Of a DNA stretch of 64,000 bases, positions 15,238-40,908 are shown piece after piece. The DNA comes from Thalassovita autumnalis (lineage in GTDB: Bacteria > Pseudomonadota > Alphaproteobacteria > Rhodobacterales > Rhodobacteraceae). Each line of letters opens with the position of its first letter. The stretch's first letter is position 1. Location: positions 80,054 through 144,053 of the forward strand of contig NZ_CYSB01000036.1 in NCBI RefSeq assembly GCF_001458255.1, in the 5' to 3' direction. A program made the position numbers and the translations under genes. Below the pieces are notes generated by a model. That model was not told the origin of the DNA and made no database searches. It was given only the letters and a program-made list of their open reading frames with translations.

Positions 15238-15248
15238 AGGGGGAGACA

Positions 15249-16244: not shown

Positions 16245-16254
16245 GGGGGCAGGG

Positions 16255-18220: not shown

Positions 18221-18236
18221 GCCCCGCATAAACCCC

Positions 18237-18258
18237 GGCGGCGGACCCAACCGCCGCC
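18237..18258 (+). other. Intercistronic hairpin GGCGGCGG/CCGCCGCC
   Basis: A perfect 8-bp GC stem with a 6-base loop in the 105-base gap between the aldo/keto reductase and the GlpD-like gene. No T-run follows. It may dampen read-through or mark an mRNA processing site that splits the operon into transport/regulation and catabolic halves. Confidence 0.45.
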
Positions 18259-18325
18259 CCGCGGGGCCTTGCCCTAAAAACAGACCCAAAGAACGCTGCG
18301 GCCCCCGTCAGCGCACGGAGAAGAT

Positions 18326-20041: not shown

Positions 20042-20874
20042 GCATGAAAGCCCGTATGAACCGGATGTTTAGCAACGGGGGCTGCCTGGATGTGGCCATC
20101 GATCACGGCGTCTGCAATGAGCCGAGCTTTATGGTGGGGCTGGAGGATATGCCTGCGGTGATGGACACGCTGATTGGCGCCAAGCCAGATGCGATCCAAT
20201 GTGCCTATGGTCAGGCCGATCTGCTGCAAAGCCGCCTGGAAAAGGACAAGCCGGCGCTGGTCATGCGGATCGACATGGGCAACCCCTATAACGATCAGCG
20301 CCACCGGGTGATGTGGTCGATGCTGCAAAACGCCGAAGAGCCGATAATCGGCGCGTTGGAAATGGATGCGGCGGCGGTGGTTGTGAACCTGTTTATGCTG
20401 CCTGATGAGCCGGAGCTGTTCCGCCAATGTGTGGAAAACATCAGCCGGGTGCGCGCTTCCTGTGAGAAATATGGCATGCCTTTGATGATTGAACCCTTGG
20501 TGATGCTGCCCAATGACGTGCGCGGGGGCTATCAGGTCGATGGCAATGCTGAAAAGATCGTTACCCTAACCCGGCTGGCCAGCGAAATGGGCGCGGATAT
20601 CATTAAGGCAGATCCCACCGATGATCCTGAAGAGTTCCACCGCGTGGTCGAGGCAGCCCGGGTACCCGTTCTTGTGCGGGGCGGCGGTAAGGACGATCTG
20701 CGTGCGGTTCTGAACAAATCGGCCGCGTTGATGCAGCAGGGTGCAAAAGGCATGGTCTATGGCCGCAATATCTATCAGCATGACAACCCGAAGGCCGTGG
20801 TCAACGCCTTGATGGCGATGATCCACAATGGCGCGGGCGGCGAAGAAGCATGGGACATCTATAACCGTGGCTGA
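20032..20874 (+). CDS. Class I aldolase of the DhnA/LsrF family
   Basis: 280 residues, TIM barrel of the DhnA/FbaB/LsrF group, which uses a Schiff-base lysine. The expected lysine is Lys192 in GADIIKADPTDD, aligned by eye with the LsrF lysine; VLVRGGGKDD is the phosphate-binding strand and AIDHGVCNE the entry motif. LsrF acts on phospho-AI-2 products as a thiolase; other members cleave sugar phosphates. Here it probably splits a ketose phosphate made by the GlpD-like enzyme and kinase. The start has AAGGACAGCGCA upstream; further in-frame ATGs lie close behind. Confidence 0.85.
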   Translation: MRMSMKARMNRMFSNGGCLDVAIDHGVCNEPSFMVGLEDMPAVMDTLIGAKPDAIQCAYGQADLLQSRLEKDKPALVMRIDMGNPYNDQRHRVMWSMLQNAEEPIIGALEMDAAAVVVNLFMLPDEPELFRQCVENISRVRASCEKYGMPLMIEPLVMLPNDVRGGYQVDGNAEKIVTLTRLASEMGADIIKADPTDDPEEFHRVVEAARVPVLVRGGGKDDLRAVLNKSAALMQQGAKGMVYGRNIYQHDNPKAVVNALMAMIHNGAGGEEAWDIYNRG

Positions 20875-22381
20875 GGAACAGAAATATCTGCTGGGTCTGG
20901 ATGCGGGCAACACGGTGATCAAGGCCGTGTTGTTCGATCTGGACGGGCGACAGGTGGCGATGCAAGCGCTGGATGGTCAGACCGCAACCCCTGCGCCGGG
21001 CCATGTGGAACGTGACCTTTCGGAACTGTGGCGCAACGCAGGTCAGGTGATCCGCGACTGCATTGCAGAAGCTGGGATTGCGCCCTCGCAAATCGCGGGC
21101 GTGGGCTGCGCAGGCCATGGCAACGGGCTCTATGCGCTCGACCAATCAGGCGCGCCCCTTCTGGGCATCCAGTCCCTGGACACCCGCGCCGCCGCAGTGG
21201 CTGAGGAGCTTTCGTCCGCAAATGGCGCGGCGCTGCATGACATCTGCCTGCAACGCCCCTGGCCATCGCAGACGCCGGTTCTTCTGGCCTGGGTCAAACG
21301 CCACCAGCCAGAGGTCTATGCCCAGATCGGCACGGTGCTGCTATGCAAGGATTTCATCACCTATCAGCTGACCGGCGCCCGAGTGACGGAGATTTCTGAC
21401 ATGTCGGGCTGCGGTCTGACGCGGATGCCGGATTGCCGCTATGACGCCGACCTCATGGCGCACTACGGGTTGTCAGATGCGATGGATCTGCTGCCGCCAA
21501 TGGTGCAGCCGGCTGACATTGCGGGCCATGTGACGGCAGAGGCTGCCGCCGCTACGGGATTGGCCGAAGGCACCCCGGTCATTGGCGGCTATTTCGATGT
21601 CATCTCCTCAGCGCTGGGATCCGGGGTGTGCCGTGACGGTGAGGCCTCGATCATCGCAGGCACTTGGTCGATCAATCAGGTCTTCTCGGCCCAGCCGGTG
21701 CGAGACGGTGATGTTTTCATGGCCTCAGGCTTCGCGCCGGGACGCTTCGTGAACATCGAAGCCTCGGCCACCTCGGCGGCCAATCTGGAATGGTATGTCC
21801 GCGAACTGGTGGAACGTGGCGCCCATCACGATGATCCCTTTGGATTTTGCAACGATTTGGTTCGCCAGGTCACCCCGGCGCTGGATGATCCGATCTGTCA
21901 GCCGTTCCTTTATGGATCGGGGCAGGGGGCCGATTATCGCGGGGGCTACTTCGGACTGGCCGGTTGGCACGGCGAAGCCCACATGCTGCGCGCCCTGTTC
22001 GAAGGGGTGGTGTTCGAACACCGCCGCCATATTGAGGTGCTGCGCCGCGCGGGCGTACGGTTTGACAGTGCTGTTCTGTCGGGTGGCGGATCACGTAGTC
22101 CGCACTGGCCGCAGATCTTTGCTGATTGTCTGGGCCTGCCAATCCGGGTGGCGGAGGCGCGCGAAACCGGGGCGCTGGGCGCGGCCATTGGTGTGGCCGT
22201 GGCCGTTGGTCTGGCCGAGGATTATGAGGCTGCCGTGGGGCGCATGACCCGCGCCAAGGCGGATTTCACCCCTGATCCGGCGATGCAGGCACATTACGAT
22301 CAGCGCTATCAGCTTTATTGCGATCTGAATGCGGCGATGCAGCCCCTTTGGGCCCGGCTGAACCAGATGCGGGACGCGTAA
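20867..22381 (+). CDS. FGGY-family carbohydrate kinase
   Basis: 504 residues with the two FGGY domains: an N-terminal phosphate-loop start [17 protein letters not shown], a central [15 protein letters not shown], and a C-terminal ATPase part with [19 protein letters not shown] and [10 protein letters not shown]. It resembles L-xylulose and erythritol kinases more than xylulokinase by eye. It should trap the imported sugar or polyol as a phosphate. GTG 20867 overlaps the aldolase stop by 8 bases; a longer start at 20828 would overlap more and adds residues unlike the family. Confidence 0.87.
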
Positions 22382-22382
22382 G

Positions 22383-23987
22383 ATGGCCCAATTGGATGGA
22401 GAGTATGACTACGTCATCGTTGGCGCGGGCACGGCGGGCTGCGTGCTGGCCAACCGGCTGAGCGCGGATCCCAAAAACAAGGTGCTGCTGCTGGAGGCGG
22501 GGAAAAGCGACAACTATCACTGGGTGCATATCCCGGTGGGTTATCTTTACTGCATCGGCAATCCACGCACCGACTGGATGATGAAAACCGCCGCGGAGCC
22601 CGGGCTCAACGGGCGTTCCCTGACCTACCCGCGTGGCAAGGTGCTGGGCGGTTGCACCTCGGTCAACGGGATGATCTACATGCGCGGGCAGGCGGCGGAC
22701 TATGACCTGTGGCGCCAGATGGGCAATCCCGGCTGGGGCTGGGACGATGTGTTGCCCTACTTCCTGCGGTCCGAGGATCACTACGGCGGTGACAGTGCGA
22801 TGCATCGCGGTGGCGGCGAGTGGAAGGTCAGCAAACAGCGGCTTAACTGGGATATCCTCAGCGCGGTGCAGGAAGGAGCCAAGGAGTTTGGCATTCACCC
22901 GCGTGCAGATTTCAACGACGGCAACAACGAAGGCTCCGGCTATTTCGAAGTGAACCAACGTAACGGTGTGCGCTGGAACACCGCCAAAGGGTTCCTGCGT
23001 CCGGCGATGAAACGGGGCAACCTGCGGGTTGTGACCGAGGCTGAGACCAAACGGCTGACGATGGACGGCACCCGCATCACCGGGGTTGAGTTTCTGCGCG
23101 GTGGTCAGGTGACCACGGTCAAGGCACGGCGTGAGGTGTTGCTGGCAGCCGGCGCGATCAATTCGCCTAAAGTGTTGGAGCTATCCGGCATCGGCCGGCC
23201 GGAGGTGCTGGCAGAGCATGGCATTGAACCCCGGCATGAACTGTCAGGGGTGGGCGAAAACTTGCAAGATCACCTGCAGATCCGCACGGTCTACAAGGTG
23301 CAGGATGCCAAGACACTGAACACCATGGCAAATTCGCTGTTCGGCAAGGCCAAGATCGCGCTGCAATACGGGCTGACGCAAAGCGGTCCGATGTCGATGG
23401 CGCCCAGCCAGTTTGGCATGTTCACCAAATCGCGCCCCGATCTGGAGATGCCGGATCTGGAATATCACGTGCAGCCGCTGTCGACCGACAAGCTGGGCGA
23501 CCCACTGCATCCTTTCCCGGCGATCACGGTTTCGGTCTGTAATTTGCGCCCCGACAGTCTGGGCTCATGTCATATCCAAAGCGCCAATCTAAACCAGCAG
23601 CCGGACATCCGGTTGAACTACCTGTCGGCCGAAAGTGACAAGGCGGTTGCCGTTGCATCGATCAAACAGGTGCGTCAGGTGATGACGGCGACGGCTTTGG
23701 AAAAACACAAGCCGCAGGAGGTTTTGCCGGGCCCTGGATGTGACACGGATCATGACATTCTAAGCGCCGTTGGCGATATTGCGACGACCATTTTCCATCC
23801 CGTTGGGACCTGTAAAATGGGCACGGATGAGGGCGCCGTGGTTGATCCGCAATTGCGGGTTCACGGATTGCAGGGGCTGCGGGTGGTCGATGCCTCGATC
23901 ATGCCCAAGATCGTTTCGGGCAACACGGCCTCGCCCGTGGTGATGATTGCGGAAAAGGCGGCGGATATGATCCTGAAGGGCGCGTAA
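22383..23987 (+). CDS. GMC-family FAD oxidoreductase (choline dehydrogenase-like)
   Basis: 534 residues. The N-terminal FAD motif [17 protein letters not shown], the GMC signature [20 protein letters not shown], and the C-terminal catalytic His in HPVGTCKMG with Asn in SGNTASP are all present, so the enzyme looks active. GMC proteins oxidise primary alcohols of polyols, sugars or choline, usually passing electrons to the respiratory chain. In this operon it probably oxidises an alcohol group of the substrate before or instead of phosphorylation. It starts one base after the kinase stop. Confidence 0.9.
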
Positions 23988-23988
23988 G

Positions 23989-24273
23989 ATGACAGTGATG
24001 GTCATCGCAGAGCTGACGCCCGTACCGGGACAGGGGGAGGTGCTGCGCCGCGCAGTGCAGACCCTGACCGTGGCCAGCCGGGGCGAAGAGGGCTGCCTGT
24101 CCTACCGTCCGCTGCTTGATCCGGCGCGGCCGGGCACAATTGTGATCCTGGAAACCTGGCGCGATGCCGAGGCTTTGGCCAGCCATGGCAAGACCGAGGC
24201 AATGGCGCAGTTCAAGGCGGCGATCAAAGGTGCCGAGGTGGTGGTTACACGGCACCGGATTTCCCCCGCTTAG
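23989..24273 (+). CDS. ABM-domain protein (LsrG/quinol monooxygenase-like)
   Basis: 94 residues, a single antibiotic-biosynthesis-monooxygenase (ABM) ferredoxin-like fold. EEGCLSYRPL and ETWRDAEALASHGKTEAM are the family core. The same fold is used by LsrG, which isomerises phospho-AI-2 just before LsrF. Its presence together with an LsrF-like aldolase in one operon argues for an analogous isomerase or oxygenase step. It starts one base after the GMC gene and ends with TAG, followed by a terminator, so it closes the operon. Confidence 0.8.
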   Translation: MTVMVIAELTPVPGQGEVLRRAVQTLTVASRGEEGCLSYRPLLDPARPGTIVILETWRDAEALASHGKTEAMAQFKAAIKGAEVVVTRHRISPA

Positions 24274-24342: not shown

Positions 24343-24658
24343 GCGTTGTTGGGGGCTTTCAGGGGAAACTTGGCGTTTTTGCAATCCTGTGCATTTGGCT
24401 TTGGTTTGCACTCTCCAAAATTCTGGAATGGCTTTCTGAGCTTTGCTTAAATAATTGTTTTTGTTTGCGTATCTACAGCTTGCACAGCTGTGCAAGAATC
24501 CGTTGACAATGAGGCCCCCCGTGCCGCAGGCTGGTATGCAGGCCGGGAGGCATCGCGGGCGGCTGGCATTCGGCTTGCTTGCGGTCAGAAGACAAAAGAC
24601 GGGAGGGGCACGTCGTGGGAGGACGAGCGCTGCGCAGCCAAAGTGAGGGCGCGCTGAC
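24343..24658 (+). other. Promoter region of the phosphoester-type ABC operon
   Basis: About 316 bases without a gene. It carries the palindromic operator at 24479-24496 and, directly after it, a TTGACA (24503-24508) that could be a -35 box; no good -10 at normal spacing was seen. A GAGGG ribosome site (24645-24649) lies 9 bases before ATG 24659. Confidence 0.55.
24479..24496. promoter_or_regulatory. Palindromic operator CTTGCACAGCTGTGCAAG
   Basis: A perfect 18-bp palindrome upstream of the ABC operon. Its half-site TTGCACA recurs, again as a palindrome, at 31871-31888 upstream of the phosphatase gene, and in degenerate form upstream of the LacI gene at 30651-31667. LacI-family operators have this even-length symmetry, so this LacI protein is the probable binder. 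Confidence 0.75.
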
Positions 24659-24706
24659 ATGAGCAATCCAGAAATGCTGGGCGGCAAAGAAAGCCGCCGT
24701 TTGTAG
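24659..24706 (+). other. Fifteen-codon in-frame leader ending in TAG before the permease
   Basis: ATG 24659 has a good GAGGG ribosome site and reads MSNPEMLGGKESRRL before TAG at 24704-24706. The frame then continues without further stops into the permease. Either the permease originally began here and a nonsense change cut off its head, or this is a leader peptide with re-initiation at TTG 24710, three bases after the stop. GGCGGC/GCCGCC at 24680-24698 can form a small hairpin within it. Confidence 0.5.
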
Positions 24707-24709
24707 CGG

Positions 24710-26485
24710 TTGAAGTACCGTTTGCGTATTGGCTGGCGCGAACCAACAGCGTTGATCGGTGTGCTGCTGACGGTGCTGTTTGCCTATCTGATCGTCGTGC
24801 CGATCATCTCGCTACTGTATGACTCGATCGAAATTCAGTTTGGCGATGGCCGTCGGGCCGGTGGCCAGATGGGGGATCTGACCACCTATTATTTTGACCG
24901 GGCTCTGTTTTCGCCGGTGGCCAGTGATCTGTTCTGGGAACCACTTTCGCATACGCTGTCGGTGTCTGCCGGGGCGATCACCCTGTCGCTGAGCATCGGG
25001 GGCATGTTGGCCTGGCTCTTGGCGCGGACGGATATGTTTGCGCGCCGCTGGTTCGCCACCGCGTTGATCGTGCCCTATATGCTGCCCAGCTGGACCTTTG
25101 CGCTGGCCTGGCGCACCCTGTTCAAGAACCGCGAGGTTGGGGGGCAGCCGGGGTGGCTGGAATCGATGGGCTACACGCCGCCGGATTGGCTGGCCTATGG
25201 GCAGGTGCCGATCACGGTTATTCTGGCCCTGCATTACACCCCTTTTGTGATCCTGCTCTTTGGCAATGCCCTGCGCCGTTTTGACAGCCAGCTGGAAGAT
25301 TCCGCGCGTATTTTGGGCGCCAAACCGGGCACCGTGGCGCGCCAGATCATCCTGCCACTGATGCTGCCGGCGCTGATGTCGGCGACCGTGCTGATCTTTG
25401 CCAAATGTCTGGGGGAGTTCGGTGTGTCTTACGTGCTGGGCCTGCCGGTGGACTATGATGTGCTGGCGACCTCGCTCTATCGTTCGATCAGTTCACGTCA
25501 GCCCGGTGTGGCGGCGGTGATTGCCATGGCGATCCTGTTGATCGGTGTGGTGTCGCTGCTGATTGATGCAAGGCTGGTGCGCGAAAGCCGCCGCTTTGTC
25601 ACCGTGGGCGGCAAAGGATCGATGAACCGCAAAACCCGGCTGGGGATCTACCGTCTGCCAGCCACGGCGATTGCCGCGATCATCTTTGTGCTGTCGGTCT
25701 GCCTGCCGCTGTTTGTGCTGATGGCATCGACCGTCATGAAGGTGCCGGGCCTCTTTGCCTGGGATAACTTCACGCTGGATTACTGGATCGGCGAAAACCT
25801 CGACACCGTCGCCTATACCACCGGCATTCTCTATACGTCCGACCTTTGGAATGCGATGTGGAGCACATTGCGCATCGTGGGCTTTGCCTCACTTTGCAGC
25901 GGCCTCCTGGGCCTGTTGGTCGGCTATGTTGTCGTGCGCTCCCCCGTGCGACCGGTGGGCAGTTTCCTGCGCCAGGTTACGTTCTTCCCATACCTGGTAC
26001 CTGGGATCGCTTTTGCGGCTGCCTACCTTTCTTTGTTTGCGGTGCCACGTGGACCAATCCCGGCCCTTTATGGCACCGCAGCGATCCTGATCCTGGCGCT
26101 GATGGCGGATCAGATGCCCTATGCCAGCCGGGCCGGGATCTCGGCGATGATGCAGCTGGGCAAAGACCCTGAGGAGGCCGCGCAGGTGGCCGGCGCCGGG
26201 TGGTTCCGCCGGATGATCGCAGTGGTTATCCCGATCCAGAAGGGGGCGCTGGTCGCAGGTGTGATCCTGCCGTTCATTTCGGGGATCCGCGGCCTCAGCC
26301 TGTTTGTGATCCTCGCGGTGCCGGGCACCGATGTGCTGACCACGTTTTCGCTGCGCCTGTTGGATTACAACTACACACAAGCCGCCAATGCGATTGTGCT
26401 GATCATCTCGGCCATTGCCTACTTCGGCACGCTGGCGGCGCAGAAAATCACCAAAACAAACCTCGCTGACGGATTGGGGGGATAA
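24710..26485 (+). CDS. ABC transporter permease, fused double BPD_transp_1 (ferric/organophosphate type)
   Basis: 591 residues with two permease halves, each with about six helices and an EAA loop (LEDSARILGAKPGTVARQI in the first, PEEAAQVAGAGWFRRM in the second), as in AfuB/FbpB-type importers. These systems move ferric iron, phosphonates or sugar phosphates. The listed start is TTG 24710 without a clear ribosome site of its own; an in-frame ATG with a good site lies at 24659 but is separated by TAG. It is followed 3 bases later by the ATPase gene. Neighbouring phosphatases suggest a phosphorylated organic substrate. Confidence 0.82.
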   Translation: MKYRLRIGWREPTALIGVLLTVLFAYLIVVPIISLLYDSIEIQFGDGRRAGGQMGDLTTYYFDRALFSPVASDLFWEPLSHTLSVSAGAITLSLSIGGMLAWLLARTDMFARRWFATALIVPYMLPSWTFALAWRTLFKNREVGGQPGWLESMGYTPPDWLAYGQVPITVILALHYTPFVILLFGNALRRFDSQLEDSARILGAKPGTVARQIILPLMLPALMSATVLIFAKCLGEFGVSYVLGLPVDYDVLATSLYRSISSRQPGVAAVIAMAILLIGVVSLLIDARLVRESRRFVTVGGKGSMNRKTRLGIYRLPATAIAAIIFVLSVCLPLFVLMASTVMKVPGLFAWDNFTLDYWIGENLDTVAYTTGILYTSDLWNAMWSTLRIVGFASLCSGLLGLLVGYVVVRSPVRPVGSFLRQVTFFPYLVPGIAFAAAYLSLFAVPRGPIPALYGTAAILILALMADQMPYASRAGISAMMQLGKDPEEAAQVAGAGWFRRMIAVVIPIQKGALVAGVILPFISGIRGLSLFVILAVPGTDVLTTFSLRLLDYNYTQAANAIVLIISAIAYFGTLAAQKITKTNLADGLGG

Positions 26486-26488
26486 CCG

Positions 26489-27637
26489 ATGCCGACGATC
26501 AAGCTGACTTCGGTCGACAAACAATATGACAAGAGCAGCCCCGTAAAAGCGGTGGATGATCTGAACCTTGAAATCGGTGATGGCGAGTTCATGTGCCTGC
26601 TTGGCCCATCGGGCTGCGGCAAGACCAACACGCTGCGGATGATTGCGGGTCTGGAAAACCTGTCCGAGGGCGCGATCCAGGTGGGGGAGCGTCTGGTCGA
26701 CAGCGCGAATGACGGGGTGTTTGTGCCACCTGAAAAACGTGGCATGGGGCTGGTGTTTCAGTCTTACGCGCTGTGGCCGCATCTGACGATTGAGCGCAAC
26801 ACCGACTTTGGTTTGCGCCTGCGCAAAGTGCCGAAAGCTGAGCGGGAAGAGCGTGTGAACCACGTGATGAAGACGCTGGGGATTGAGCAATATCGCGATC
26901 GCTACCCCTCACAGCTGTCGGGTGGACAACAGCAGCGGGTTGCCTTGGCGCGGATGCTGGCGGTGAACCCTGAGGTGCTGCTACTGGATGAGCCGCTGTC
27001 GAACCTTGATGCCCGGTTGCGTCTGGAAATGCGGGCGGAGCTGAAGCGCATTCACAGCGCCTTTGGCACCACCATCGTCTGTGTGACCCACGACCAGTGG
27101 GAGGCGATGACACTGGCGACCCAGATCGCTGTGATGAACCAGGGCACCCTGCAGCAGGTGGGCACGCCCGAAGATATTTATGACCGCCCCGCCAACCGTT
27201 TTGTGGCCGAGTTTGTCGGCAGCCCGCCGATCAACATCGTTGAGATGCATGATGGCGGTGACGCTGGGTTGCGTCAGGCGCTGCGAGCGCATTTGCAGGG
27301 GGATTATGCCCATGGGGCCGAGATTGCCTCGGTCGGGATGCGGCCTGAGAACATCCAGATTGCAGCTTCGCCTGCGGCGGTTTCGGACAGCGATTTCCAG
27401 CGTCCGATGGTCGTCACCGCGGTGCTGCCAACTGGGGGCAGCTGGATTGTCGAGATGGAGGATAACGGCAGCCAGCTTTTTGCAACCACCAACCAGCCGC
27501 CAGTGCTGAACGCGGGGGATAAAGGCGTCTACAGCCTGGCCCCCGGGGCGATGCACAGCTTTGACGGCAAGGGCGCGCGGTTGCAGCCGCTGGCAGAGGA
27601 GGCCAGAGCAACACAAAACATCCGAGTGGCGGGTTAA
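26489..27637 (+). CDS. ABC transporter ATPase (ferric/organophosphate type)
   Basis: 382 residues. Walker A GPSGCGKTNT (about 37-46), signature LSGGQQQRVALARM, Walker B VLLLDEPLSNLD, switch His in CVTHDQWEAMT, and a C-terminal TOBE-type regulatory domain (about 280-360). This architecture matches the CysA/FbpC/PotA group. GGGGGAT upstream serves as ribosome site. The gene appears intact, in contrast to its partners on each side, both of which show an in-frame TAG. Confidence 0.9.
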   Translation: MPTIKLTSVDKQYDKSSPVKAVDDLNLEIGDGEFMCLLGPSGCGKTNTLRMIAGLENLSEGAIQVGERLVDSANDGVFVPPEKRGMGLVFQSYALWPHLTIERNTDFGLRLRKVPKAEREERVNHVMKTLGIEQYRDRYPSQLSGGQQQRVALARMLAVNPEVLLLDEPLSNLDARLRLEMRAELKRIHSAFGTTIVCVTHDQWEAMTLATQIAVMNQGTLQQVGTPEDIYDRPANRFVAEFVGSPPINIVEMHDGGDAGLRQALRAHLQGDYAHGAEIASVGMRPENIQIAASPAAVSDSDFQRPMVVTAVLPTGGSWIVEMEDNGSQLFATTNQPPVLNAGDKGVYSLAPGAMHSFDGKGARLQPLAEEARATQNIRVAG

Positions 27638-27670
27638 CCGCCACCGGGCACCAACGTGGAGGAGAAGACT

Positions 27671-28603
27671 ATGAAAAAGATGACCAAAAATCTGTTAAAA
27701 AACAGTTGCCTGGCTGGTGTAGCCCTGGGCGCGATGGTTGGGGCCGCTCAGGCTGAGGAGTTCAACATCGATGCCTTGATCGAAGCCGCCAAAGCCGAGC
27801 CGGGGATCACCATCTACGCCAGCACCGGCAAAATCAAAAAGGCCGCTGCCGCCTTCACCGAGCTTTACGGGATTGAGGCGACAGGCACCAAGGTGAAGGG
27901 CGCCGCGCAGATCGAACTGGTGGTGCGTGAGGCGCAGGCCCGCAACATCGTCGGTGATGTGATCATCTCCTCGGACGCGGGTGCCGCGCTGGCACAGCTG
28001 CTGCCGTCGGGCATCGTGGCCAGCTGGACCCCGCCGGATCTGGCGGGCGATATTCGTGACGACAGCAAAGACCCGCTTGTGGTCTGGCGTGATCCGTCGC
28101 TTTGGACCTACAACAACGAAGACGGCGGCGCCTGCCCGGTTTCCAACATCTGGGAGCTGACCGGCGAGGAGTGGGCCCGTCGTGTCACCATGGAAGATCC
28201 GCTGAACAAGCCGTCGTTCATTGACTGGTTCAACCAGATGGAAATGCATGGCGATGATAAGATGGCCGCGGCCTATGAGGCGCATTTTGGCAAGGCGCTG
28301 GACACCTCTGGCCAAAGCGCAACCAAAACATGGGTGCAGATGATCGCGGCCAACGCCCCTTTGCTGACCGACAGCTCATCCGGCGCGGCCGAGGCGATTG
28401 GCACCCGGGGGCAGGATAAGCCGTTCTTTGGTTTGGTGGCTTCGGCCAAGTACCGTGATGTCAGCCCCGAAGGTCTGGCCATGGCCCCCTGTGAGGGCAT
28501 TGAGCCTTCGATCGGGTTCGCCAAACCGGGCTACGGTCTGATCGCAGATGGCACCGACAGCCCCAATGCGGCGAAACTGTTCCTGCACTATATGATGACG
28601 TAG
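27671..28603 (+). CDS. ABC transporter binding protein, truncated by an in-frame TAG
   Basis: 310 residues remain of a type II periplasmic binding protein of the FbpA/AfuA kind. The signal peptide runs to about AAQA; EPGITIYASTGKIKKAAAAF is the usual first mature strand. ATG 27671 follows GGAGGAGAAGACT. The frame stops at TAG 28601-28603 in the middle of the C-terminal helix (FLHYMMT), then continues in the same frame for 63 more codons that look like the rest of the family's C-terminus. A change from GAG to TAG would explain it, because the position is normally acidic in the homologues I remember. If real, the protein probably misfolds or binds poorly. Confidence 0.8.
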   Translation: MKKMTKNLLKNSCLAGVALGAMVGAAQAEEFNIDALIEAAKAEPGITIYASTGKIKKAAAAFTELYGIEATGTKVKGAAQIELVVREAQARNIVGDVIISSDAGAALAQLLPSGIVASWTPPDLAGDIRDDSKDPLVVWRDPSLWTYNNEDGGACPVSNIWELTGEEWARRVTMEDPLNKPSFIDWFNQMEMHGDDKMAAAYEAHFGKALDTSGQSATKTWVQMIAANAPLLTDSSSGAAEAIGTRGQDKPFFGLVASAKYRDVSPEGLAMAPCEGIEPSIGFAKPGYGLIADGTDSPNAAKLFLHYMMT

Positions 28604-28795
28604 GACGGCGTGATGCCGATGACTTCGGATGGCAAACTGTCGGGTAATGGCGCCGTGCCTGCCAACCCCAAGGATATTTCCAACGCCGCCGCTTTGGTGG
28701 ATGACCTGACCCCACATATCGCGGCCACGGGCATGGATGACTTCGACCTGCGGCAGGACTGGCAGGGTTTCTGGCGCATCCACTACAAGCGCTAA
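28604..28795 (+). pseudogene. Detached C-terminal part of the ABC binding protein
   Basis: The frame of the binding-protein gene resumes after the TAG with DGVMPMTSDGKLSG and ends with DDFDLRQDWQGFWRIHYKR before TAA. The DW-FW-HYKR ending is typical of full-length FbpA/AfuA-like binding proteins. No ribosome site precedes it, so separate translation is unlikely; a GTG at 28610 is the only nearby start. Confidence 0.75.
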
Positions 28796-28851
28796 GTGAA
28801 ATGGGGTGGCTGCCAATGTGGCGGCCACCTGACCCAGTGATTGAGAATGAC

Positions 28852-29724
28852 ATGAGCCAAGCCACCCCTGAAACCAGTGTTGAGATGCCTGCCGGGTTTG
28901 ACCCTGAAGAAAGTGCGCAGCTGCGCGCGGTGGCGATTGCTGCGGCGATGGCCGTGGCACCGGGGCTTAAGGCGGCGTTCCGGTCCAAGATGGTGGTCGA
29001 TTTCAAAAATGACCTGCGTGACATTGTCACCGAACACGACCGCGCTGCCGAAGTGGCAATCACCGAACACCTGTTGGCTGCAGTGCCGCAGTCCGAGGTT
29101 CTGGGCGAAGAAGGGGGCCTGCGTGGCAGCGGGCCGGTGCGCTGGTATGTCGATCCCATTGACGGCACGGCAAATTTTGCCCGAGGGCTGCCGAACTGGT
29201 GCATCTCCATCGGGGCGGTTGTGGACGGTCAAATCGTGGCGGGTGTGATCGTTGACCCGATGGGCGGCAATGTGTTTAGCGCGGATCTGCGGGGGGCTTA
29301 CCTGAATGACGCCCCGATGCGGTCCAATGCAGCGCAGGAGGCGCGGTTCGCCACGCTGATTTCCAGCTACCCGGCGGCCCGCGATTTCGCTGCGGACGGC
29401 AAAGCGGCCGCGCTGGAGGACTTTGGCCAGTTGGTTGAGGGGTTTTCCTCCGTGCGTCGCAACGGCAGCGCTGCTTTGGGGCTGGCTCATGTGGCGGCGG
29501 GCTGGGCGGATGCCGCGGCTGGGTTTGGCATCAATGCCTGGGATGTGACCGCGGCCGTGTTGATTTTACGCCAGTCTGGCGGGCGCTATCTGCCTTTTGC
29601 CTATGGCCAGACCCCGGCGGCAGAGCCGGCCTTTGTACATCCCGGCTACATCGCCATCGGGGGAGGCGGCGACTATCCGTTTTTGTCCCAAACCTGGGCC
29701 CGTATCGCGGCGTCGCGATCCTAA
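28852..29724 (+). CDS. Inositol monophosphatase-family phosphatase 1
   Basis: 290 residues of the lithium-sensitive FIG superfamily (IMPase, histidinol phosphatase, CysQ). Metal ligands are visible: Glu in LGEEGG (86-87), DPIDGT (Asp101, Asp104), and the second motif NAWDVTAA near the C-terminus. It hydrolyses a small phosphate monoester, with Mg2+. ATG 28852 is chosen; ATG 28801, six bases after the transporter frame ends, is possible and would add 17 residues. It lies in the transporter operon, which suggests that it dephosphorylates an imported ester, although family members also have housekeeping roles. Confidence 0.85.
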   Translation: MSQATPETSVEMPAGFDPEESAQLRAVAIAAAMAVAPGLKAAFRSKMVVDFKNDLRDIVTEHDRAAEVAITEHLLAAVPQSEVLGEEGGLRGSGPVRWYVDPIDGTANFARGLPNWCISIGAVVDGQIVAGVIVDPMGGNVFSADLRGAYLNDAPMRSNAAQEARFATLISSYPAARDFAADGKAAALEDFGQLVEGFSSVRRNGSAALGLAHVAAGWADAAAGFGINAWDVTAAVLILRQSGGRYLPFAYGQTPAAEPAFVHPGYIAIGGGGDYPFLSQTWARIAASRS

Positions 29725-29768
29725 GGCGGCGCAATAACGCGCATTGAAGATCTAAGAGACAAGACAAC

Positions 29769-30641
29769 ATGACCCATCCATCGGCGACTAACACCCTGAC
29801 GCAAGTGAGCGAAGCGCGGCTTTCAGATGCCGAAGCGCTGGATCTGCGCGCGGACTTCTGTCTGCAGCTGATCCGGCAGGCGGGCGATGTGGCGTTGGAC
29901 GGTTTTGCGCGCCAGGTTCAGGGGCAGGCCGCAGGGCAGGCGGGCCAACCACTGGCGACCAAAGGCCCGCAGGATTTCTTGACCGAGACCGATTTGGCTG
30001 TCGAAGAGTTTATCCGCGCGCAGGTGGCAGAGGCCTTTCCTGCTGATGGGTTCTTTGGGGAAGAAACAGGCCAAGCCGCGGGGGACGCTATCTGGATCGT
30101 TGACCCGATCGATGGCACCGCAAATTTTGCCCGCGCCATCCCACATTATTGCATCGCAATCGCGCTGGTGCTGCGCGGTCAGCTGGAATTTGGCGCGATC
30201 TACGCCCCCAGCACGGATGAGATTTACTGGGCACGGCGCGGGGCTGGGGCCTACCGCAATCAAACCCGGCTGAGCGTGGCCGCAACGCAGGATGTGGCGC
30301 AGGCGACCTATGAGCTGGGCTGGTCAAATCGGCAAAGCAATCAGGCATATTTGGATATTCTCGCCCAACTGCTGGACGGCGGCGTCAACGTGCGCCGCGC
30401 TGCATCCGGGGCCTTGGCGCTGGCCTATGTGGCGGACGGGCGCTCAGATGGCTATGCCGAATTGGATATGAACGCCTGGGACTGTCTGGCGGGATTGCTG
30501 ATGGTGGCTGAGGCCGGCGGCATCGTTGGCGGCACAGCGCTGAGCGGCGATTTGACCAGCGGGGGGGCCGTTTTGGCGGTGGCGCCGGGGGTTTCAGACC
30601 TGTTGATCCGCGCCAGTGGCATTGCGCCGCAAGACGCCTGA
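29769..30641 (+). CDS. Inositol monophosphatase-family phosphatase 2
   Basis: 290 residues, same superfamily as its upstream neighbour but clearly diverged, so not a recent duplicate. Key residues: TETD (72-75), GEE (97-99), VDPIDGTANFARAIPHY (Asp112, Asp115) and MNAWDCLAG. It begins 44 bases after phosphatase 1 on the same strand and ends 9 bases before the convergent LacI gene. Two different paralogues in one operon suggest two phosphate positions or two esters of the same imported compound; this is inference. Confidence 0.85.
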   Translation: MTHPSATNTLTQVSEARLSDAEALDLRADFCLQLIRQAGDVALDGFARQVQGQAAGQAGQPLATKGPQDFLTETDLAVEEFIRAQVAEAFPADGFFGEETGQAAGDAIWIVDPIDGTANFARAIPHYCIAIALVLRGQLEFGAIYAPSTDEIYWARRGAGAYRNQTRLSVAATQDVAQATYELGWSNRQSNQAYLDILAQLLDGGVNVRRAASGALALAYVADGRSDGYAELDMNAWDCLAGLLMVAEAGGIVGGTALSGDLTSGGAVLAVAPGVSDLLIRASGIAPQDA

Positions 30642-30650
30642 TCACTGTAT

Positions 30651-31667
30651 TTACCGCGGTCTGACAGACCCGCGCCAAACCGGGTGGGCGACAAACCGCG
30701 TGGGGGGCGGCACTGTCTCAAGCGCAGGCTGCGGTTCGTTGATCAACTGGGTGATATGCTGCGTGATCTCATCCAGCGGCTGGCGGAAGGTGGTCAGGTT
30801 ATAACTGCTCCAGCCGGCCTGTTCGATGTCATCAAAGCCGATCACACACAGCTCCTCGGGCACTTTTAAGCCAAACTCATTGCGGGCCACATCCATGAAG
30901 CCGCAGGCCAGAAGATCGGTGATGCAAAAGGCGCCATCGGGGTGGTTTTGCCCACTAAACAGCCGCCGCGCCACTTCGGCCCCAGAGGCATAGGTTGAGG
31001 CACCGCTGCGGGTCACGGTGACATCGACGCCCTGTGCATTGGCTTCCTCCACAAAGGCGGTTTCCCGTGCCAAGAGGCTGGGCGTGCCCACGTCCGAGGC
31101 CACCAGCGCGATGGTCTGACAGCCCACCCGGTGTAACATGTGAAAGGCTTCCCGCGCCGACGCCCGGTTGGAGATCATGATGTTTTCGGTGCCTGAAACG
31201 CTCTGGTCTCGGTTGGCAACGATCACTCGCTGGCCACTGCGCACACAGGTTTCAATCAAGGCCTCATCAGGCTGGCCCGACAGAACTACCGAGGCATCCG
31301 CCCGATAATAAAGCGTTTGACGCAGCGCACGGTTTACCCCGCTGTCGCCCGAGGCATTGACGATCATCACCACCTTGTTGGCGGCCTGCAAATCGCGGGT
31401 CAGGATTTCAATGAACTTCGACTGATAGGGCGATGCCATATCGGCGGCGACCAGACAGACAATATTGCTGTTTTCCTGGATCAAACCGCGGGCCAGATGA
31501 TTGACGTGGTAGCCCAGCGTATCGGCCGCTGCCATGACCTTGTCGCGTGTCGCCTTGGAGACCGAGGCCCCTTCGGTAAAGGTGCGCGACACCGCCGATC
31601 TGGATACGCCAGCCAGCTCTGCAACCTGCTGGGCGCTGACAAAAGACTTGCCTGATTTGTCTTTCAT
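30651..31667 (-). CDS. LacI-family regulator (probable controller of the phosphoester regulon)
   Basis: 338 residues: helix-turn-helix with hinge at about 8-60 (SAQQVAELAGVSRSAVSRTF, then LGYHVNHLARGL), followed by a type I periplasmic-binding-like effector domain ending in VCVIGFDD-type motifs (LCVIGFDDIEQAGW). ATG 31667 is chosen because it gives the standard LacI N-terminus; the frame continues upstream without one. AGAGAAG lies 5 bases before it. Palindromes at 24479-24496 and 31871-31888 and a weaker copy at 31694-31709, 27 bases upstream of this start, are its likely operators. Confidence 0.88.
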   Translation of the reverse strand: MKDKSGKSFVSAQQVAELAGVSRSAVSRTFTEGASVSKATRDKVMAAADTLGYHVNHLARGLIQENSNIVCLVAADMASPYQSKFIEILTRDLQAANKVVMIVNASGDSGVNRALRQTLYYRADASVVLSGQPDEALIETCVRSGQRVIVANRDQSVSGTENIMISNRASAREAFHMLHRVGCQTIALVASDVGTPSLLARETAFVEEANAQGVDVTVTRSGASTYASGAEVARRLFSGQNHPDGAFCITDLLACGFMDVARNEFGLKVPEELCVIGFDDIEQAGWSSYNLTTFRQPLDEITQHITQLINEPQPALETVPPPTRFVAHPVWRGSVRPR

Positions 31668-31693
31668 GCGGCTTCTCTGGTTTGACCAATTAT

Positions 31694-31709
31694 GTGCACG
31701 GCTGTGCAG
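31694..31709. promoter_or_regulatory. Degenerate copy of the TTGCACA palindrome upstream of lacI-type gene
   Basis: On the - strand it reads CTGCACAGCCGTGCAC, three mismatches from TTGCACAGCTGTGCAA. It lies 27 bases upstream of the LacI gene start, so it may give weak autoregulation. Confidence 0.45.
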
Positions 31710-31870
31710 GGAGGGTGGTGCCTTGCGGGTCACCACCAGGGTTGGGCCAAGCATAGCCGTAGGAATGTAACGATTCAATGACGATGGCAGCACTTGCGCC
31801 GGTCGAAATTGTTGTTGTTTCCCTTCAATTCAGTGAGAAAATACTGGCGTCAAAGGTTGCGACGGGCTAA

Positions 31871-31888
31871 TTTGCACAGGTGTGCAAA
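31871..31888. promoter_or_regulatory. Palindromic operator TTTGCACAGGTGTGCAAA
   Basis: Perfect 8-base arms TTTGCACA/TGTGCAAA around a GG centre, 47 bases upstream of the phosphatase gene at 31936. It shares the half-site of the palindrome at 24479-24496. Confidence 0.75.
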
Positions 31889-31935
31889 ATTCGAAATCGG
31901 ATCTGTCGCGCGGCAGGACATCAGCAGGAAGCCAA

Positions 31936-32598
31936 ATGACCAAACAGCAAACTGAAGTGACAGACCCCAGCGCAAAAGCTGCGGCGCAAAAGGCAAATGT
32001 GCCCTTTATAGAACGCCCCCCGCTGACCTTGATTGCGCAGGGCGTGGGGCCGGAGAAGGTTGACCTCTATATCGGGGGGACCGAGGGCGCGCGGGATGTT
32101 GGCCAATTGCAGGACCTCGGGATCACCACGGTGATCAACTGCGCGGTTAATCTGGACATCAACTATGTCACCGAACCCAAGTTGCAGGCCGACGGGGACA
32201 AGCGTGCCACCGGCATGGCGCCCATTCGCTGCTACAAAATCGGCTTGGTCGATGGCCCGGGCAATCCGCGCGACATGTTGCTGGGCGGTTATTTCATTCT
32301 GGAAAGCGCGCTGAGCCAGCAGATTCCGGAAAAAGCCTCATACCCTGTGCGGGATCGCGGTCACGTGTTGGTGCATTGTCGCGGTGGGCGCAGCCGGTCG
32401 GTTGCGCTGGTGGCATTGTTCCTGCACAAAGATCAGCCTGAGCGCTTCGCAACTTTGGACGATGCAATCGCCCATATACGTGACAAACGCGACTTGCATC
32501 CGGATGAATGGTTTGAAACCCCGAAACAGGTGCTGATCGACGCCGCCGAACATGCGGCAAACGCAATAGACCTGCTGCGTGCCCCCACTGCGGGGTAG
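31936..32598 (+). CDS. Dual-specificity-type phosphatase
   Basis: 220 residues with a Cys-based phosphatase fold. The signature HCRGGRSRS contains the nucleophile Cys148 and Arg154 (CX5R); VDGPGN (Asp106) could supply the general acid. Bacterial proteins of this group act on phosphoproteins or small phosphoesters, and some act on phosphoinositide-like substrates. AGGAA about 7 bases before ATG 31936 decides the start. The operator upstream places it under the LacI regulator that probably also controls the ABC importer and the two IMPase-type enzymes. The TerC-like gene follows after 21 bases. Confidence 0.8.
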   Translation: MTKQQTEVTDPSAKAAAQKANVPFIERPPLTLIAQGVGPEKVDLYIGGTEGARDVGQLQDLGITTVINCAVNLDINYVTEPKLQADGDKRATGMAPIRCYKIGLVDGPGNPRDMLLGGYFILESALSQQIPEKASYPVRDRGHVLVHCRGGRSRSVALVALFLHKDQPERFATLDDAIAHIRDKRDLHPDEWFETPKQVLIDAAEHAANAIDLLRAPTAG

Positions 32599-32619: not shown

Positions 32620-33660
32620 ATGCTGCGCTATTTTGCCTGGCCGTTTCTCTTTACCGCCATTGGGCTTGTGCTATGTTTCTGGCTGGGCTGGTTCTACAGC
32701 GGCACGCTGGGCGGGGCGCTGGCGTTTCTGCTGACCGGTGCAATCCTTGCGGTGCTGGAAATCTCGCTGTCCTTCGACAATGCGGTGGTGAATGCGCACA
32801 AGCTGAAAACGATGCGGCCCGAATGGCAGCGCAGGTTCCTGACTTGGGGTATTTTGATCGCGGTGTTCGGCATGCGGATCGTCTTCCCGCTGGTGATAGT
32901 TGTGATCGCTGCCAAGATCGGGCCTGTGTCAGCGGTGGTTTTGGCCGCCTCTGATCCTGATGCCTATGCAGCCATTATCAGTGACGCCCATCTGCCGATT
33001 GCGGCTTTTGGCGGATCCTTCCTGATGATGGTGGCGCTGACCTATTTTGTGGATGACGGCAAAGAGGTCGACTGGATCCGGGCATTGGAGTGCAAATTGC
33101 GGGCCTGTGCCTCAATCCGGGGGCTGGAAATTGCGTTTGTGCTGGCAATTGCAGTTGGGTTCACGCTGGTGCTGCCTGGGCCAAAAGGGGCGCAGTTCCT
33201 GTTTGCCGCGGTCTGTGGCCTGCTGACCTTCCTTGTGGTCGAATTTGCCAGCCACTTTCTGGACAATGAATCAAAGTCCACCACAGGGGCTGCAACAGGG
33301 GGCTTTGGCGCCTTCATGTATCTGGAGGTGCTGGATGCCTCCTTCAGTTTTGATGGGGTGATTGGGGCCTTTGCCTTGACGCAGAACCTGTTTTTGATCG
33401 CCATTGGTCTGGGGATCGGGGCGTTTTATGTGCGTGCGATGACCATCATGCTGGTGGAAAAGCAAACGCTGGCAGAGTTGCGGTATCTCGAACATGGTGC
33501 CTTTTATGCGATCCTGTCGTTGTCGATCATCATGTATGTGCAGGTTCTGGTGCATATTCCTGAGGTGATCACTGGGCTGATTGGCGCGGCTTTCATTGGT
33601 CTGTCGCTCTGGTCATCCCTGCGCCACAACAAGTTGGAGCGTGCGCAGGGGGTGATCTGA
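32620..33660 (+). CDS. TerC/DUF475-family membrane protein
   Basis: 346 residues, about nine membrane helices. Two copies of the TerC-type acidic motif are visible: LEISLSFDNAVVNA near residue 47 and LEVLDASFSFDGVIGA near 237. TerC relatives are linked to tellurite resistance and to metal-ion export with membrane insertion; the role of the DUF475 branch is unsettled. AAGGA stands 7 bases before the ATG. It follows the phosphatase gene closely, so it may be part of the same transcript. Confidence 0.82.
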   Translation: MLRYFAWPFLFTAIGLVLCFWLGWFYSGTLGGALAFLLTGAILAVLEISLSFDNAVVNAHKLKTMRPEWQRRFLTWGILIAVFGMRIVFPLVIVVIAAKIGPVSAVVLAASDPDAYAAIISDAHLPIAAFGGSFLMMVALTYFVDDGKEVDWIRALECKLRACASIRGLEIAFVLAIAVGFTLVLPGPKGAQFLFAAVCGLLTFLVVEFASHFLDNESKSTTGAATGGFGAFMYLEVLDASFSFDGVIGAFALTQNLFLIAIGLGIGAFYVRAMTIMLVEKQTLAELRYLEHGAFYAILSLSIIMYVQVLVHIPEVITGLIGAAFIGLSLWSSLRHNKLERAQGVI

Positions 33661-36407: not shown

Positions 36408-37439
36408 TTAGGCGTCGCGTGGTGGCGCTGTGCTGCCGCGCGCGATCAATTCCACATCCACCAGTTCGATTTGCGGGCAGGCGTCGGCGGGCTTGCCCTT
36501 GAGCCGCGCCAGCAGCCGGTCGGCTGCGCGGGTGCCAAGGGTGCGGCGGTCCTGCCGGATCGTGGTCAGGGGCGGACTGGCGAAGGCGGCCATCTCAATA
36601 TCATCAAAGCCGACTACGGAAACATCTTCGGGCACGGAAAGGCCGGCCTCGCGTAATCCTGAAATCAGCCCGATCGCCACCATATCCGAGGCACAGAAAA
36701 CGGCGGTGGGGCGCTCGGCCATAGCGGCAATTTTTGCAGCTGCGGCATGGCCGGATTCCAATGAGAAATCGCCCCGGATCACCCAATCTTCACGCGTGGG
36801 AAGGCCAAGGCGGTTGCGTTCTTCCAGCATGGTTTCGCGGCGAATGCGGGTTAGGACGTTGCCCTTGGGGCCGGTGATATGGGCGATCTTACGATGCCCC
36901 AGATCATAAAGATGCCGGATCACCGCCCGCGCCCCAAAAGCATTGTCGCTCCGCACCGATGGGTGCGGCGCATCCTGCACCCATTCACAGGCAAAAACGA
37001 TGCGATCTGCCACACCGTTTTGCTCAAATTCCGCCAGTTGATCGGCGCTCAAACCGCCATCGAGTGAGATCATGCCGTCAATCCGACTGTCGAGGAAGTA
37101 ATCCACCAGCCGCCGCCCATCCTGTTCCGGCAGTGAGGTATCGGCTACCAGCACCGAAAACTCACTATCAGCAAAACGCGCTGAGATCCCGGCGAGGATC
37201 TGCGAAAAGAACGGGTTGCCCAGGTTGGGGGTCAGCACAAGCACCGCGCCGGCCTGCTGTTTGCGAAGGTTCCGTGCCGCCTTGTTCAGCCGGTAGCCCG
37301 TGATTCGAACCGCCTCTGCCACCAGCTCGCGGGTTTTTTCCGACACCAGATTGGGGTTGGAGAGCGCCCGGCTGACCGTCGCGGTTGAGACTTCGGCTTG
37401 GCGTGCAACATCCTGAATTGTAGCTGGTTTCTGGGTCAT
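36408..37439 (-). CDS. LacI-family regulator of the xyloside-type operon
   Basis: 343 residues: helix-turn-helix (TIQDVARQAEVSTATVSRAL, about 7-26), hinge ITGYRLNKAARNLR, then the sugar-binding core, ending in SVVGFDDIEMAAFASPPLTT. It is divergent from the GH43/ABC operon and 78 bases from the nearer of two TGTAATCGATTRCA palindromes, the typical LacI arrangement in alphaproteobacterial sugar operons. ATG 37439 gives the canonical LacI start; the frame remains open further upstream and includes unlikely residues. GGAG lies about 10 bases before the ATG. Confidence 0.9.
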   Translation of the reverse strand: MTQKPATIQDVARQAEVSTATVSRALSNPNLVSEKTRELVAEAVRITGYRLNKAARNLRKQQAGAVLVLTPNLGNPFFSQILAGISARFADSEFSVLVADTSLPEQDGRRLVDYFLDSRIDGMISLDGGLSADQLAEFEQNGVADRIVFACEWVQDAPHPSVRSDNAFGARAVIRHLYDLGHRKIAHITGPKGNVLTRIRRETMLEERNRLGLPTREDWVIRGDFSLESGHAAAAKIAAMAERPTAVFCASDMVAIGLISGLREAGLSVPEDVSVVGFDDIEMAAFASPPLTTIRQDRRTLGTRAADRLLARLKGKPADACPQIELVDVELIARGSTAPPRDA

Positions 37440-37486
37440 TTCACGGGCTCCGTATCGTCTCGCTTCATGGCATTTTGCGGATAGGC

Positions 37487-37517
37487 TTGACAAGTAGGGG
37501 GGCAAGAAACTCATATA
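37487..37517 (+). promoter_or_regulatory. Promoter of the xyloside-type operon
   Basis: TTGACA at 37487-37492 and CATATA/TATATG around 37512-37519 resemble -35 and -10 boxes with 18-19 bases between. The first LacI operator starts at 37518, immediately after the -10 box, an effective position for repression. Confidence 0.6.
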
Positions 37518-37566
37518 TGTAATCGATTGCAGTTGAAAGCTTTGCCTCGATATGTAATCGATTACA
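37518..37566. promoter_or_regulatory. Two LacI operators, TGTAATCGATTGCA and TGTAATCGATTACA
   Basis: The site at 37518-37531 has one mismatch to symmetry; the site at 37553-37566 is a perfect 14-bp palindrome with the central CG typical of LacI operators. The centres are 35 bp apart. They lie just downstream of the promoter of the binding-protein gene and within the region shared with the divergent LacI gene. Confidence 0.8.
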
Positions 37567-37649
37567 GCGTTACGCAACGCGGTGTTTTTTCGACCGCGAA
37601 GGAAACGCGCAACAAGGGGCAAGTGGAGAGGCCCCGTAGGGAGGAAGAT

Positions 37650-38885: not shown

Positions 38886-38916
38886 TCTGCCCGTTTGATC
38901 TGATTGAGGGGTGATC

Positions 38917-38951: not shown

Positions 38952-39017
38952 TCGCAAGGCAACGCCTCCCCATATATGGGCAGGCTGACCCAAGGGAAGA
39001 AGGCAGGGGACAAGACA

Positions 39018-40905: not shown

Positions 40906-40908
40906 GTC

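What the first reader, a model, noticed from the sequence alone, without database searches (positions are those of the whole stretch)
24479..32598. LacI regulon coupling a putative phosphoester importer to three phosphatases
Palindromes CTTGCACAGCTGTGCAAG (24479-24496) and TTTGCACAGGTGTGCAAA (31871-31888) precede, respectively, an AfuABC-like ABC operon carrying two IMPase-family phosphatases and a dual-specificity-type phosphatase. A degenerate copy stands before the LacI gene between them. AfuA-type binding proteins can take up sugar phosphates. Import of an intact phosphoester followed by internal dephosphorylation, sensed by a LacI protein rather than by PhoB, would be unusual.
Basis: partly seen in the sequence, partly recalled or inferred. 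Interest (0 to 1): 0.75.

Follow-up and report, generated by a model that had tools for sequence, protein, structure and literature searches.

The report
LacI-controlled inositol phosphate import cluster
Beside a gene for a likely repressor lie genes for a transporter and three phosphatases that are predicted to bring inositol phosphates into the bacterium whole and strip them inside, which would differ from the described way of digesting such plant phosphorus stores outside the cell; in this strain the readings of two import genes meet early stop codons.

Summary
Two perfect TTGCACA-N2-TGTGCAA palindromes lie before the transporter operon and the DSP phosphatase gene; they are the only exact copies in the 4.36 Mb genome, and a degenerate copy stands before lacI. 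Fifteen loci, window included, share the transporter; 9 of the 12 with the LacI have a site with at most 2 mismatches before the permease, against 0 of 3 without it. Inositol phosphates are the likeliest substrate: a beta-propeller phytase gene lies near the module in 3 of 15 loci, in two of them in an operon divergent from the permease; 4 of 8 core genomes have a phytase against 6 of 386 others (P = 1.4e-5); a full set of iol genes adjoins the module in Marinomonas, and iol genes share its contig in G058. Some loci add a Na/Pi-type transporter. The likely logic is carbon use of an imported phosphoester sensed by LacI. Binding, transport and enzyme activity are untested, and this genome has no phytase of that family. 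Its binding-protein gene has an in-frame TAG and the permease reading another; a 99% identical 374-aa relative is intact.

The parts
24479..24496 (.). operator palindrome CTTGCACAGCTGTGCAAG before the transporter operon
   Evidence: exact; one of two exact TTGCACANNTGTGCAA copies in the genome
24659..26485 (+). fused ABC permease gene; the reading from ATG 24659 meets TAG at 24704-24706, the open frame restarts at TTG 24710
   Evidence: two BPD_transp_1 stretches; 61-76% identical to five relatives, whose reading frames begin further upstream; TAG in frame
26489..27637 (+). ABC transporter ATPase
   Evidence: PF00005
27671..28795 (+). substrate-binding protein gene, interrupted by TAG at 28601-28603 (310 aa open, homology goes on to 28795)
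   Evidence: '1 TAG'; 374-aa relative P0241, 99% identical over all 310 residues
28852..29724 (+). inositol monophosphatase-family phosphatase 1
   Evidence: PF00459 E 1.6e-48 (scanned from 28831); motifs GEE, DPIDGT and WD read in the translation
29769..30641 (+). inositol monophosphatase-family phosphatase 2
   Evidence: PF00459 E 8.4e-55
30651..31667 (-). LacI-family regulator
   Evidence: PF00356 and PF13377
31694..31709 (.). degenerate operator before lacI
   Evidence: 3 mismatches; same layout in L023
31871..31888 (.). operator palindrome TTTGCACAGGTGTGCAAA before the DSP gene
   Evidence: exact
31936..32598 (+). dual-specificity-type cysteine phosphatase, no signal peptide by eye; signature HCRGGRSRS
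   Evidence: PF00782 E 1.6e-9; Cys148 and Arg154 invariant in 32 sequences; DUSP fold
32620..33660 (+). DUF475/TerC-family membrane protein directly behind dsp; probably not part of the conserved module
   Evidence: PF04332 E 2e-101

Best explanation
The cluster encodes an ABC transporter, two inositol-monophosphatase-family enzymes and a dual-specificity-type phosphatase beside a LacI-family gene, and is predicted to import inositol phosphates intact and to dephosphorylate them in the cytosol to inositol under likely LacI repression. Shown by sequence: the genes, the operators, their conservation, and the phytase and iol neighbours in some relatives. Inferred: LacI sits on the operators and is released by an inositol phosphate or a product of it; where a phytase is present it trims phytate outside the membrane to lower inositol phosphates; the binding protein captures these; the ABC transporter brings them in; the DSP takes off phosphates and the IMPases finish InsP1 to inositol for the iol pathway (iolB lies elsewhere in this genome). 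In some relatives a Na/Pi-type protein with PhoU domains would dispose of surplus phosphate, which suggests use as carbon source rather than a response to phosphate hunger. In this strain stop codons in the binding-protein and permease readings may have silenced import.
For: Operators: exact palindrome twice in the genome, both here; 9 of 12 LacI-bearing loci have a site with at most 2 mismatches upstream of the permease against 0 of 3 without the LacI, and at those nine 2-8% of random windows of the same loci (true sites not taken out) do as well. Of 11 exact TTGCACN4GTGCAA places in 14 genomes, 6 lie at this module and 2 at sister loci with the same LacI family; the reversed control has 2 places. 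Module: dsp in 14, IMPase in 11, LacI in 12 of 15 loci, and none of the three in 12 loci of the next SBP clade at E <= 1e-10. Phytase: near the module in L015, L016 and L068, 3 of 15 loci; in L016 and L068 it follows a small, apparently secreted protein in an operon divergent from the permease, with an operator-like site between the two; 4 of 8 core genomes against 6 of 386 others have PF02333, P = 1.4e-5. Inositol catabolism: iolG, iolB, MMSDH, iolE, iolD, iolC next to the module in Marinomonas; iolG and iolC on the same contig in G058, iolB further on; iolB over cut-off in 9 of 11 core genomes against 28 of 117 others. Na/Pi protein and metallophosphoesterase linked in some loci.
Against: No ligand, binding or enzyme test. 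The window's own genome has no PF02333 phytase, and 12 of 15 core loci have none within the stretch held; none of the 18 plasmid records with a phytase is of the Sinorhizobium/Ensifer group that carries the module. The G058 phytase is only 254 aa and matches two separate parts of the profile, so it is probably degenerate. Two core genomes (G286, G369) have no iolB over the cut-off; L017, L065, L066 and L067 have no IMPase at the locus. Within the family alone the iolB excess is modest (6 of 8 against 23 of 69, P = 0.03). None of these P values is corrected for kinship. Neither IMPase passes any NCBIfam cut-off, that for inositol-1-monophosphatase included, and the family has other substrates. 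By sequence profile the best PDB chain in one search was the Vibrio glucose-6-phosphate binder 8x1a (27.7 bits). One outer-clade locus (L070) has a distant Na/Pi protein (26%).
Confidence: 0.6

Rival explanations
1. An importer of hexose phosphates or other sugar phosphates like AfuABC, with the IMPases and DSP acting as general sugar-phosphate phosphatases.
Against: Rows of the ferric, metal-citrate and phosphoester proteins lie close together at 11-18% identity; the phytase and iol links are not explained; neither IMPase passes an NCBIfam cut-off for a sugar phosphatase.
Confidence: 0.2
2. An importer of another phosphoester that holds inositol, such as glycerophosphoinositol or phospho-inositol conjugates; the phytase linkage is a separate acquisition.
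For: Calcineurin-like phosphoesterases are linked in 5 of 11 loci tested; rhizobial copies lack a linked phytase.
Against: In L016 and L068 the phytase lies in an operon divergent from the permease with the operator-like site between them.
Confidence: 0.12
3. A ferric iron or metal-chelate transporter, as database names say, with unrelated phosphatases nearby.
For: Best fold matches are ferric- and metal-citrate-binding proteins; several records name it iron(III) transport; a TerC-like gene follows dsp in the window.
Against: 48 of 50 proteins of the clade have no adjacent Tyr-Tyr pair, and the two that do have it at residues 214-215 (that the pair marks ferric binding is recalled); phosphatases go with the transporter in 14 of 15 loci and not in 12 loci of the next clade; a LacI regulator is not the usual iron control (recalled).
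Confidence: 0.06
4. In this genome the system is a decaying relic whose importer is dead (compatible with the best explanation for the family).
For: In-frame TAG in the SBP and in the permease reading; a pattern for a tRNA with a CTA anticodon gave one hit that I judged chance (not folded).
Against: The frames of ATPase, IMPases, LacI and DSP are intact, operators are perfect, and a 99% identical intact SBP exists, so the lesions are recent or sequencing errors; the permease could restart at TTG 24710.
Confidence: 0.4

Closest known systems
AfuABC hexose-phosphate importer of Actinobacillus (PMC4546632, passages seen)
   Same: Binding protein of the same fold; imports a phosphorylated ring compound intact
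   Different: 14-16% identity; the words 'phosphatase' and 'LacI' do not occur in that text; here phosphatases, LacI, and phytase or iol neighbours in relatives
P5PAB pyridoxal-phosphate importer (PMC8427247, passages seen)
   Same: Same binding-protein fold; intact phosphoester as ligand
   Different: Cofactor salvage; the word 'phosphatase' does not occur in the text; 12% identity
Phytate use by secreted or outer-membrane phytases (review PMC12482443, passages seen)
   Same: Same nutrient class; beta-propeller phytase linked in some loci
   Different: That review says phytate cannot cross bacterial membranes and must be met outside; here partly stripped esters would be imported
IolR and LacI-family inositol regulons (PMC4052901 and PMC2597717, passages seen)
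   Same: LacI-family control of inositol-related genes is known
   Different: Those control free-inositol catabolism; here transport and dephosphorylation of esters
UgpBAEC glycerol-3-phosphate importer (recalled)
   Same: ABC import of an intact phosphoester
   Different: Pho-controlled and another binding-protein family (both recalled)

Membership tests
LacI-family local regulon | LacI HTH plus sugar-binding domain | tested here: met
   PF00356 and PF13377
LacI-family local regulon | palindromic operator before the regulated genes and rare in the genome | tested here: met
   2 exact copies in the genome, both here; conserved in 9 of 12 LacI-bearing loci
LacI-family local regulon | protein binds the operator and is released by an effector | not testable with these tools
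   no binding data
AfuABC hexose-phosphate importer | binding protein of the ferric-binding/AfuA fold | tested here: met
AfuABC hexose-phosphate importer | closer sequence kinship to AfuA than to other members of the fold | tested here: inconclusive
   8x1a (Vibrio G6P binder) first with 27.7 bits, AfuA 21.4; metal-citrate 28.4, 8x1a 26.2, AfuA 23.6; differences too small
AfuABC hexose-phosphate importer | hexose-phosphate ligand | not testable with these tools
   -
Ferric-binding protein (FbpA) | adjacent iron-binding tyrosine pair (recalled as defining) | tested here: not met
   absent in 48 of 50 proteins; in the other two at residues 214-215
P5PA pyridoxal-phosphate binder | at least 65% identity to P5PA (criterion in PMC8427247) | tested here: not met
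   12% identity to 6wce
Inositol monophosphatase family | PF00459 over cut-off with metal-site motifs | tested here: met
   166.0 and 186.6 bits, cut-off 27; motifs read
Inositol-1-monophosphatase proper (NF008027 equivalog) | score over the curated cut-off of 332 bits | tested here: not met
   106.1 and 150.4 bits
Inositol monophosphatase family | acts on inositol monophosphate | not testable with these tools
   -
Dual-specificity cysteine phosphatase | HCx5R signature and DSP fold | tested here: met
   invariant C148 and R154 in 32 sequences; PDB DUSP matches from E 4e-8

The most novel reading that the evidence does not exclude
A dedicated bacterial uptake system for inositol phosphates: a phytase outside trims phytate where present, a binding protein and ABC transporter import the partly phosphorylated inositols intact, and a cytosolic DSP-type cysteine phosphatase with IMPases strips them to inositol as carbon source, under a LacI regulator, with the surplus phosphate exported.
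Probability: 0.45. Interest if true: 0.78.

Novelty: new variant of a known kind. Interest (0 to 1): 0.62.

Why it matters
[quoted passage not shown] Bacterial phytate use is described as digestion outside the membrane (PMC12482443, passage). A dedicated importer with internal phosphatases would change how this nutrient is thought to be used, explain a family now named 'iron(III) transport' in some databases, and give rhizobia, Sinorhizobium meliloti among them, and other alpha- and gammaproteobacteria a testable route. It would also be a case in which a phosphoester is treated as carbon and sensed by LacI.

Tried and rejected
Pho-box scan with a recalled consensus: nothing above chance. Amber suppression or reassignment of TAG: the pattern for a CTA-anticodon tRNA gave one hit that I judged chance without folding it; the intact 374-aa relative makes a recent lesion or a sequencing error likelier. 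Fold search to name the ligand: uninformative, since ferric, metal-citrate, glucose-6-phosphate and pyridoxal-phosphate proteins lie close together. Phytase on plasmids that hold the module: 18 plasmid records have a phytase match and none is of the Sinorhizobium/Ensifer group. Literature by S. meliloti locus tag: one paper mentions an ABC operon SMb20155-8; I could not map it to L082, so nothing is drawn from it. PMC8829014 (passages) speaks of a possible S. meliloti phytase gene that rises under phosphate stress; I did not look for its place. Literature on import of inositol phosphates by bacteria: no such paper among the listings shown (titles and abstract starts) of searches in one open-access library; PMC2597717 only suggests that another transporter might carry inositol phosphates (passage). 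The outer SBP clade (179-229 bits in the family sample) was set aside as a different system because 12 of 12 loci looked at have no IMPase, DSP or LacI match at E <= 1e-10 in the stretch held; those 12 are 9 of the 17 outer-clade genomes of the family sample and 3 from the class and phylum samples, and L069 is cut by its contig end. L022, L025-L029 (remote or partial LacI or SBP matches) and the sister loci L018-L021 were left out of the 15-locus counts.
Full report
What is there. The operon runs permease (24659 or 24710 to 26485), ATPase (26489-27637), substrate-binding protein (27671-28795, interrupted), IMPase 1 (28852-29724), IMPase 2 (29769-30641); lacI follows on the other strand (30651-31667), and divergently from it the DSP phosphatase (31936-32598) with a DUF475/TerC gene behind it. 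TTGCACANNTGTGCAA occurs exactly twice in the 4.36 Mb genome, both here, with no one-mismatch place; 0.008 exact copies are expected from the window's base composition.

The stop codons. The binding-protein reading stops at TAG 28601-28603 after 310 residues of a protein that is 374 long in its nearest relative; the genome searches list it as '1 TAG' inside, while the other core-clade matches in the same lists have none. The permease reading from ATG 24659 meets TAG at 24704-24706 after 15 codons; the frames of five relatives likewise begin upstream of the part that aligns. TTG 24710 could restart it. A database protein of 374 aa is 99% identical to the 310 residues, so intact copies exist in near kin. 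I take these as recent lesions of this strain or sequencing errors; a suppressor tRNA was not evident by one pattern.

The module elsewhere. LacI relatives at E <= 1e-60 were found in 5 of 120 other genomes near the window's and, among 7 loci of named genomes, closest in Pelagibacterium luteolum (65%) and Marinomonas alcarazii (52%). The binding protein, as a profile, is found in 25 of 394 family genomes at E <= 1e-50, of which 8 form a clear core (matches of 449 bits and over) and 17 an outer group (179-229 bits); in 3 of 385 class genomes and 4 of 398 phylum genomes, each count including the window's own. I read 15 core loci: the window, L015, L016, L017, L023, L024, L064, L065, L066, L067, L068, L082 (S. 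meliloti 1021 pSymB), L083 (Devosia neptuniae), L084 (Ensifer sp.) and L085. All 15 have permease, ATPase and binding protein (1 to 3 copies); 14 have the DSP (not L065), 11 an IMPase (not L017, L065, L066, L067), 12 the LacI (not L017, L065, L066; L066 is a 6.9 kb contig). A metallophosphoesterase is linked in 5 and a Na/Pi-type protein in 4 of the 11 loci tested with those queries, the query's own locus L084 included; Pfam confirms Na_Pi_cotrans plus PhoU, and Metallophos, in the copies scanned. Twelve outer-clade loci have no IMPase, DSP or LacI match at E <= 1e-10; one of them (L070) has a distant Na/Pi protein.

The operator elsewhere. In the 600 bases upstream of the aligned permease start, 9 of 15 loci have a site with at most 2 mismatches; these are 9 of the 12 LacI-bearing loci and 0 of the 3 without LacI. 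At those nine, 2-8% of random windows of the same loci do as well, the true sites not taken out. The three LacI-bearing exceptions have 3 (L016), 4 (L064) and 6 (L015) mismatches, L064 with the related palindrome TTGCAAGTAGTTGCAA. The LacI recognition region reads GVSR-S/T-A/T-VSR in all 16 sequences aligned, sister loci included. An exact scan of TTGCACN4GTGCAA over 14 genomes gives 11 places in 7 genomes, the reversed control 2: 6 at this module (G000 two, G1124 two, G286, G1125), 2 at sister loci where the same LacI family stands beside an AfuABC-like transporter with one IMPase (G010, G111), and 3 elsewhere. Of those 3, one lies before an iolG-like gene with a divergent LacI gene (L122), one beside another LacI gene with an AfuABC-like operon (L121), and one before a sugar-type ABC operon with no sign of the module (L123) (names by eye, except the LacI genes of L121 and L122 by Pfam).

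The substrate. A phytase gene (PF02333) lies near the module in G047 (L016), G297 (L068) and G058 (L015), 3 of 15 loci searched. In L016 and L068 it follows a gene for a protein of about 215 aa with a signal-like start (by eye), the two proteins being 55% identical and without a Pfam match over cut-off; this pair is divergent from the permease, with the site TTGCACATATGTGCAT (L068) or a 3-mismatch site (L016) in between. In L067 (G286) a shortened relative of the same small protein is divergent from the permease, again with an exact operator in between, while the phytase of G286 lies on another contig. In G058 the phytase-like gene follows the Na/Pi gene, but it has only 254 aa with two separated profile matches and is probably degenerate. 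In the family sample 10 of 394 genomes have PF02333; 4 of the 8 core genomes are among them (G047, G058, G286, G297), against 6 of 386 others, P = 1.4e-5 (not corrected for kinship). The window's own genome has none. Inositol catabolism: iolG, iolB, MMSDH, iolE, iolD and iolC, all over the curated cut-offs, adjoin the module in Marinomonas on the opposite strand; in G058 iolG and iolC lie on the same contig with iolB at 284 kb. iolB over cut-off is in 9 of 11 core genomes including G000, against 28 of 117 other genomes of the relatives sample (P = 2e-4); within the family it is 6 of 8 against 23 of 69 (P = 0.03).

Mechanism. I hold it most likely that the LacI represses both operons, that inositol phosphates taken up at low level or their products lift repression, and that the imported esters are stripped by the DSP and the IMPases to inositol, which enters the iol pathway. 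The Na/Pi protein in some loci would export surplus phosphate (recalled for related proteins; direction not tested). This fits a carbon-source logic and would explain why LacI and not PhoB is the sensor. Steps shown: genes, operators, conservation and linkage. Steps inferred: ligand, direction of transport, enzyme substrates, effector.

Known or new. AfuABC (PMC4546632) and P5PAB (PMC8427247) show that this binding-protein fold can serve import of intact phosphoesters (passages seen). A 2025 review says phytate cannot cross bacterial membranes and must be met outside (PMC12482443, passages). No paper describing a bacterial inositol-phosphate importer was among the listings of searches. I therefore call it a new variant of a known kind.

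Noticed in passing
window 28601-28603 and 24704-24706: In-frame TAG codons in the binding-protein and permease readings; a 99% identical 374-aa binding protein is intact in near kin.
   Followed up: partly
window 32620-33660: DUF475/TerC-family membrane protein 22 bases behind dsp, probably under the same operator; TerC kin are linked to metal export (recalled), of interest because inositol phosphates bind metals.
   Followed up: no
L016 15239-15871, L068 7526-8179, L067 5826-6338: A small, apparently secreted protein (about 215 aa, shorter in L067) without a Pfam match over cut-off, divergent from the permease and, in two loci, directly before the phytase; a possible phytase partner.
   Followed up: partly
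   Followed up: partly
L122 position 7276: The same palindrome type (TTGCACGCGGGTGCAA) stands before an iolG-like operon with a divergent LacI gene.
   Followed up: partly
L082 (S. meliloti 1021 pSymB 164-190 kb): Version of the module with two DSPs, two IMPases, a metallophosphoesterase and a Na/Pi protein in a genetically tractable rhizobium; a good test organism.
   Followed up: partly
window about 12535-24273: Operon upstream with a sugar-type ABC transporter, an FGGY kinase (best NCBIfam kin xylulokinase and AI-2 kinase, below cut-offs), a GMC oxidoreductase and an ABM-domain protein; the rest read by eye.
   Followed up: no
window 36408-49650: A second LacI-family gene divergent from a large sugar ABC and Gfo/Idh-type operon; read by eye.
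   Followed up: no
all 50 binding proteins of alignment A5: Two cysteines (residues 155 and 274 of P0241) are invariant, perhaps a disulfide.
   Followed up: no
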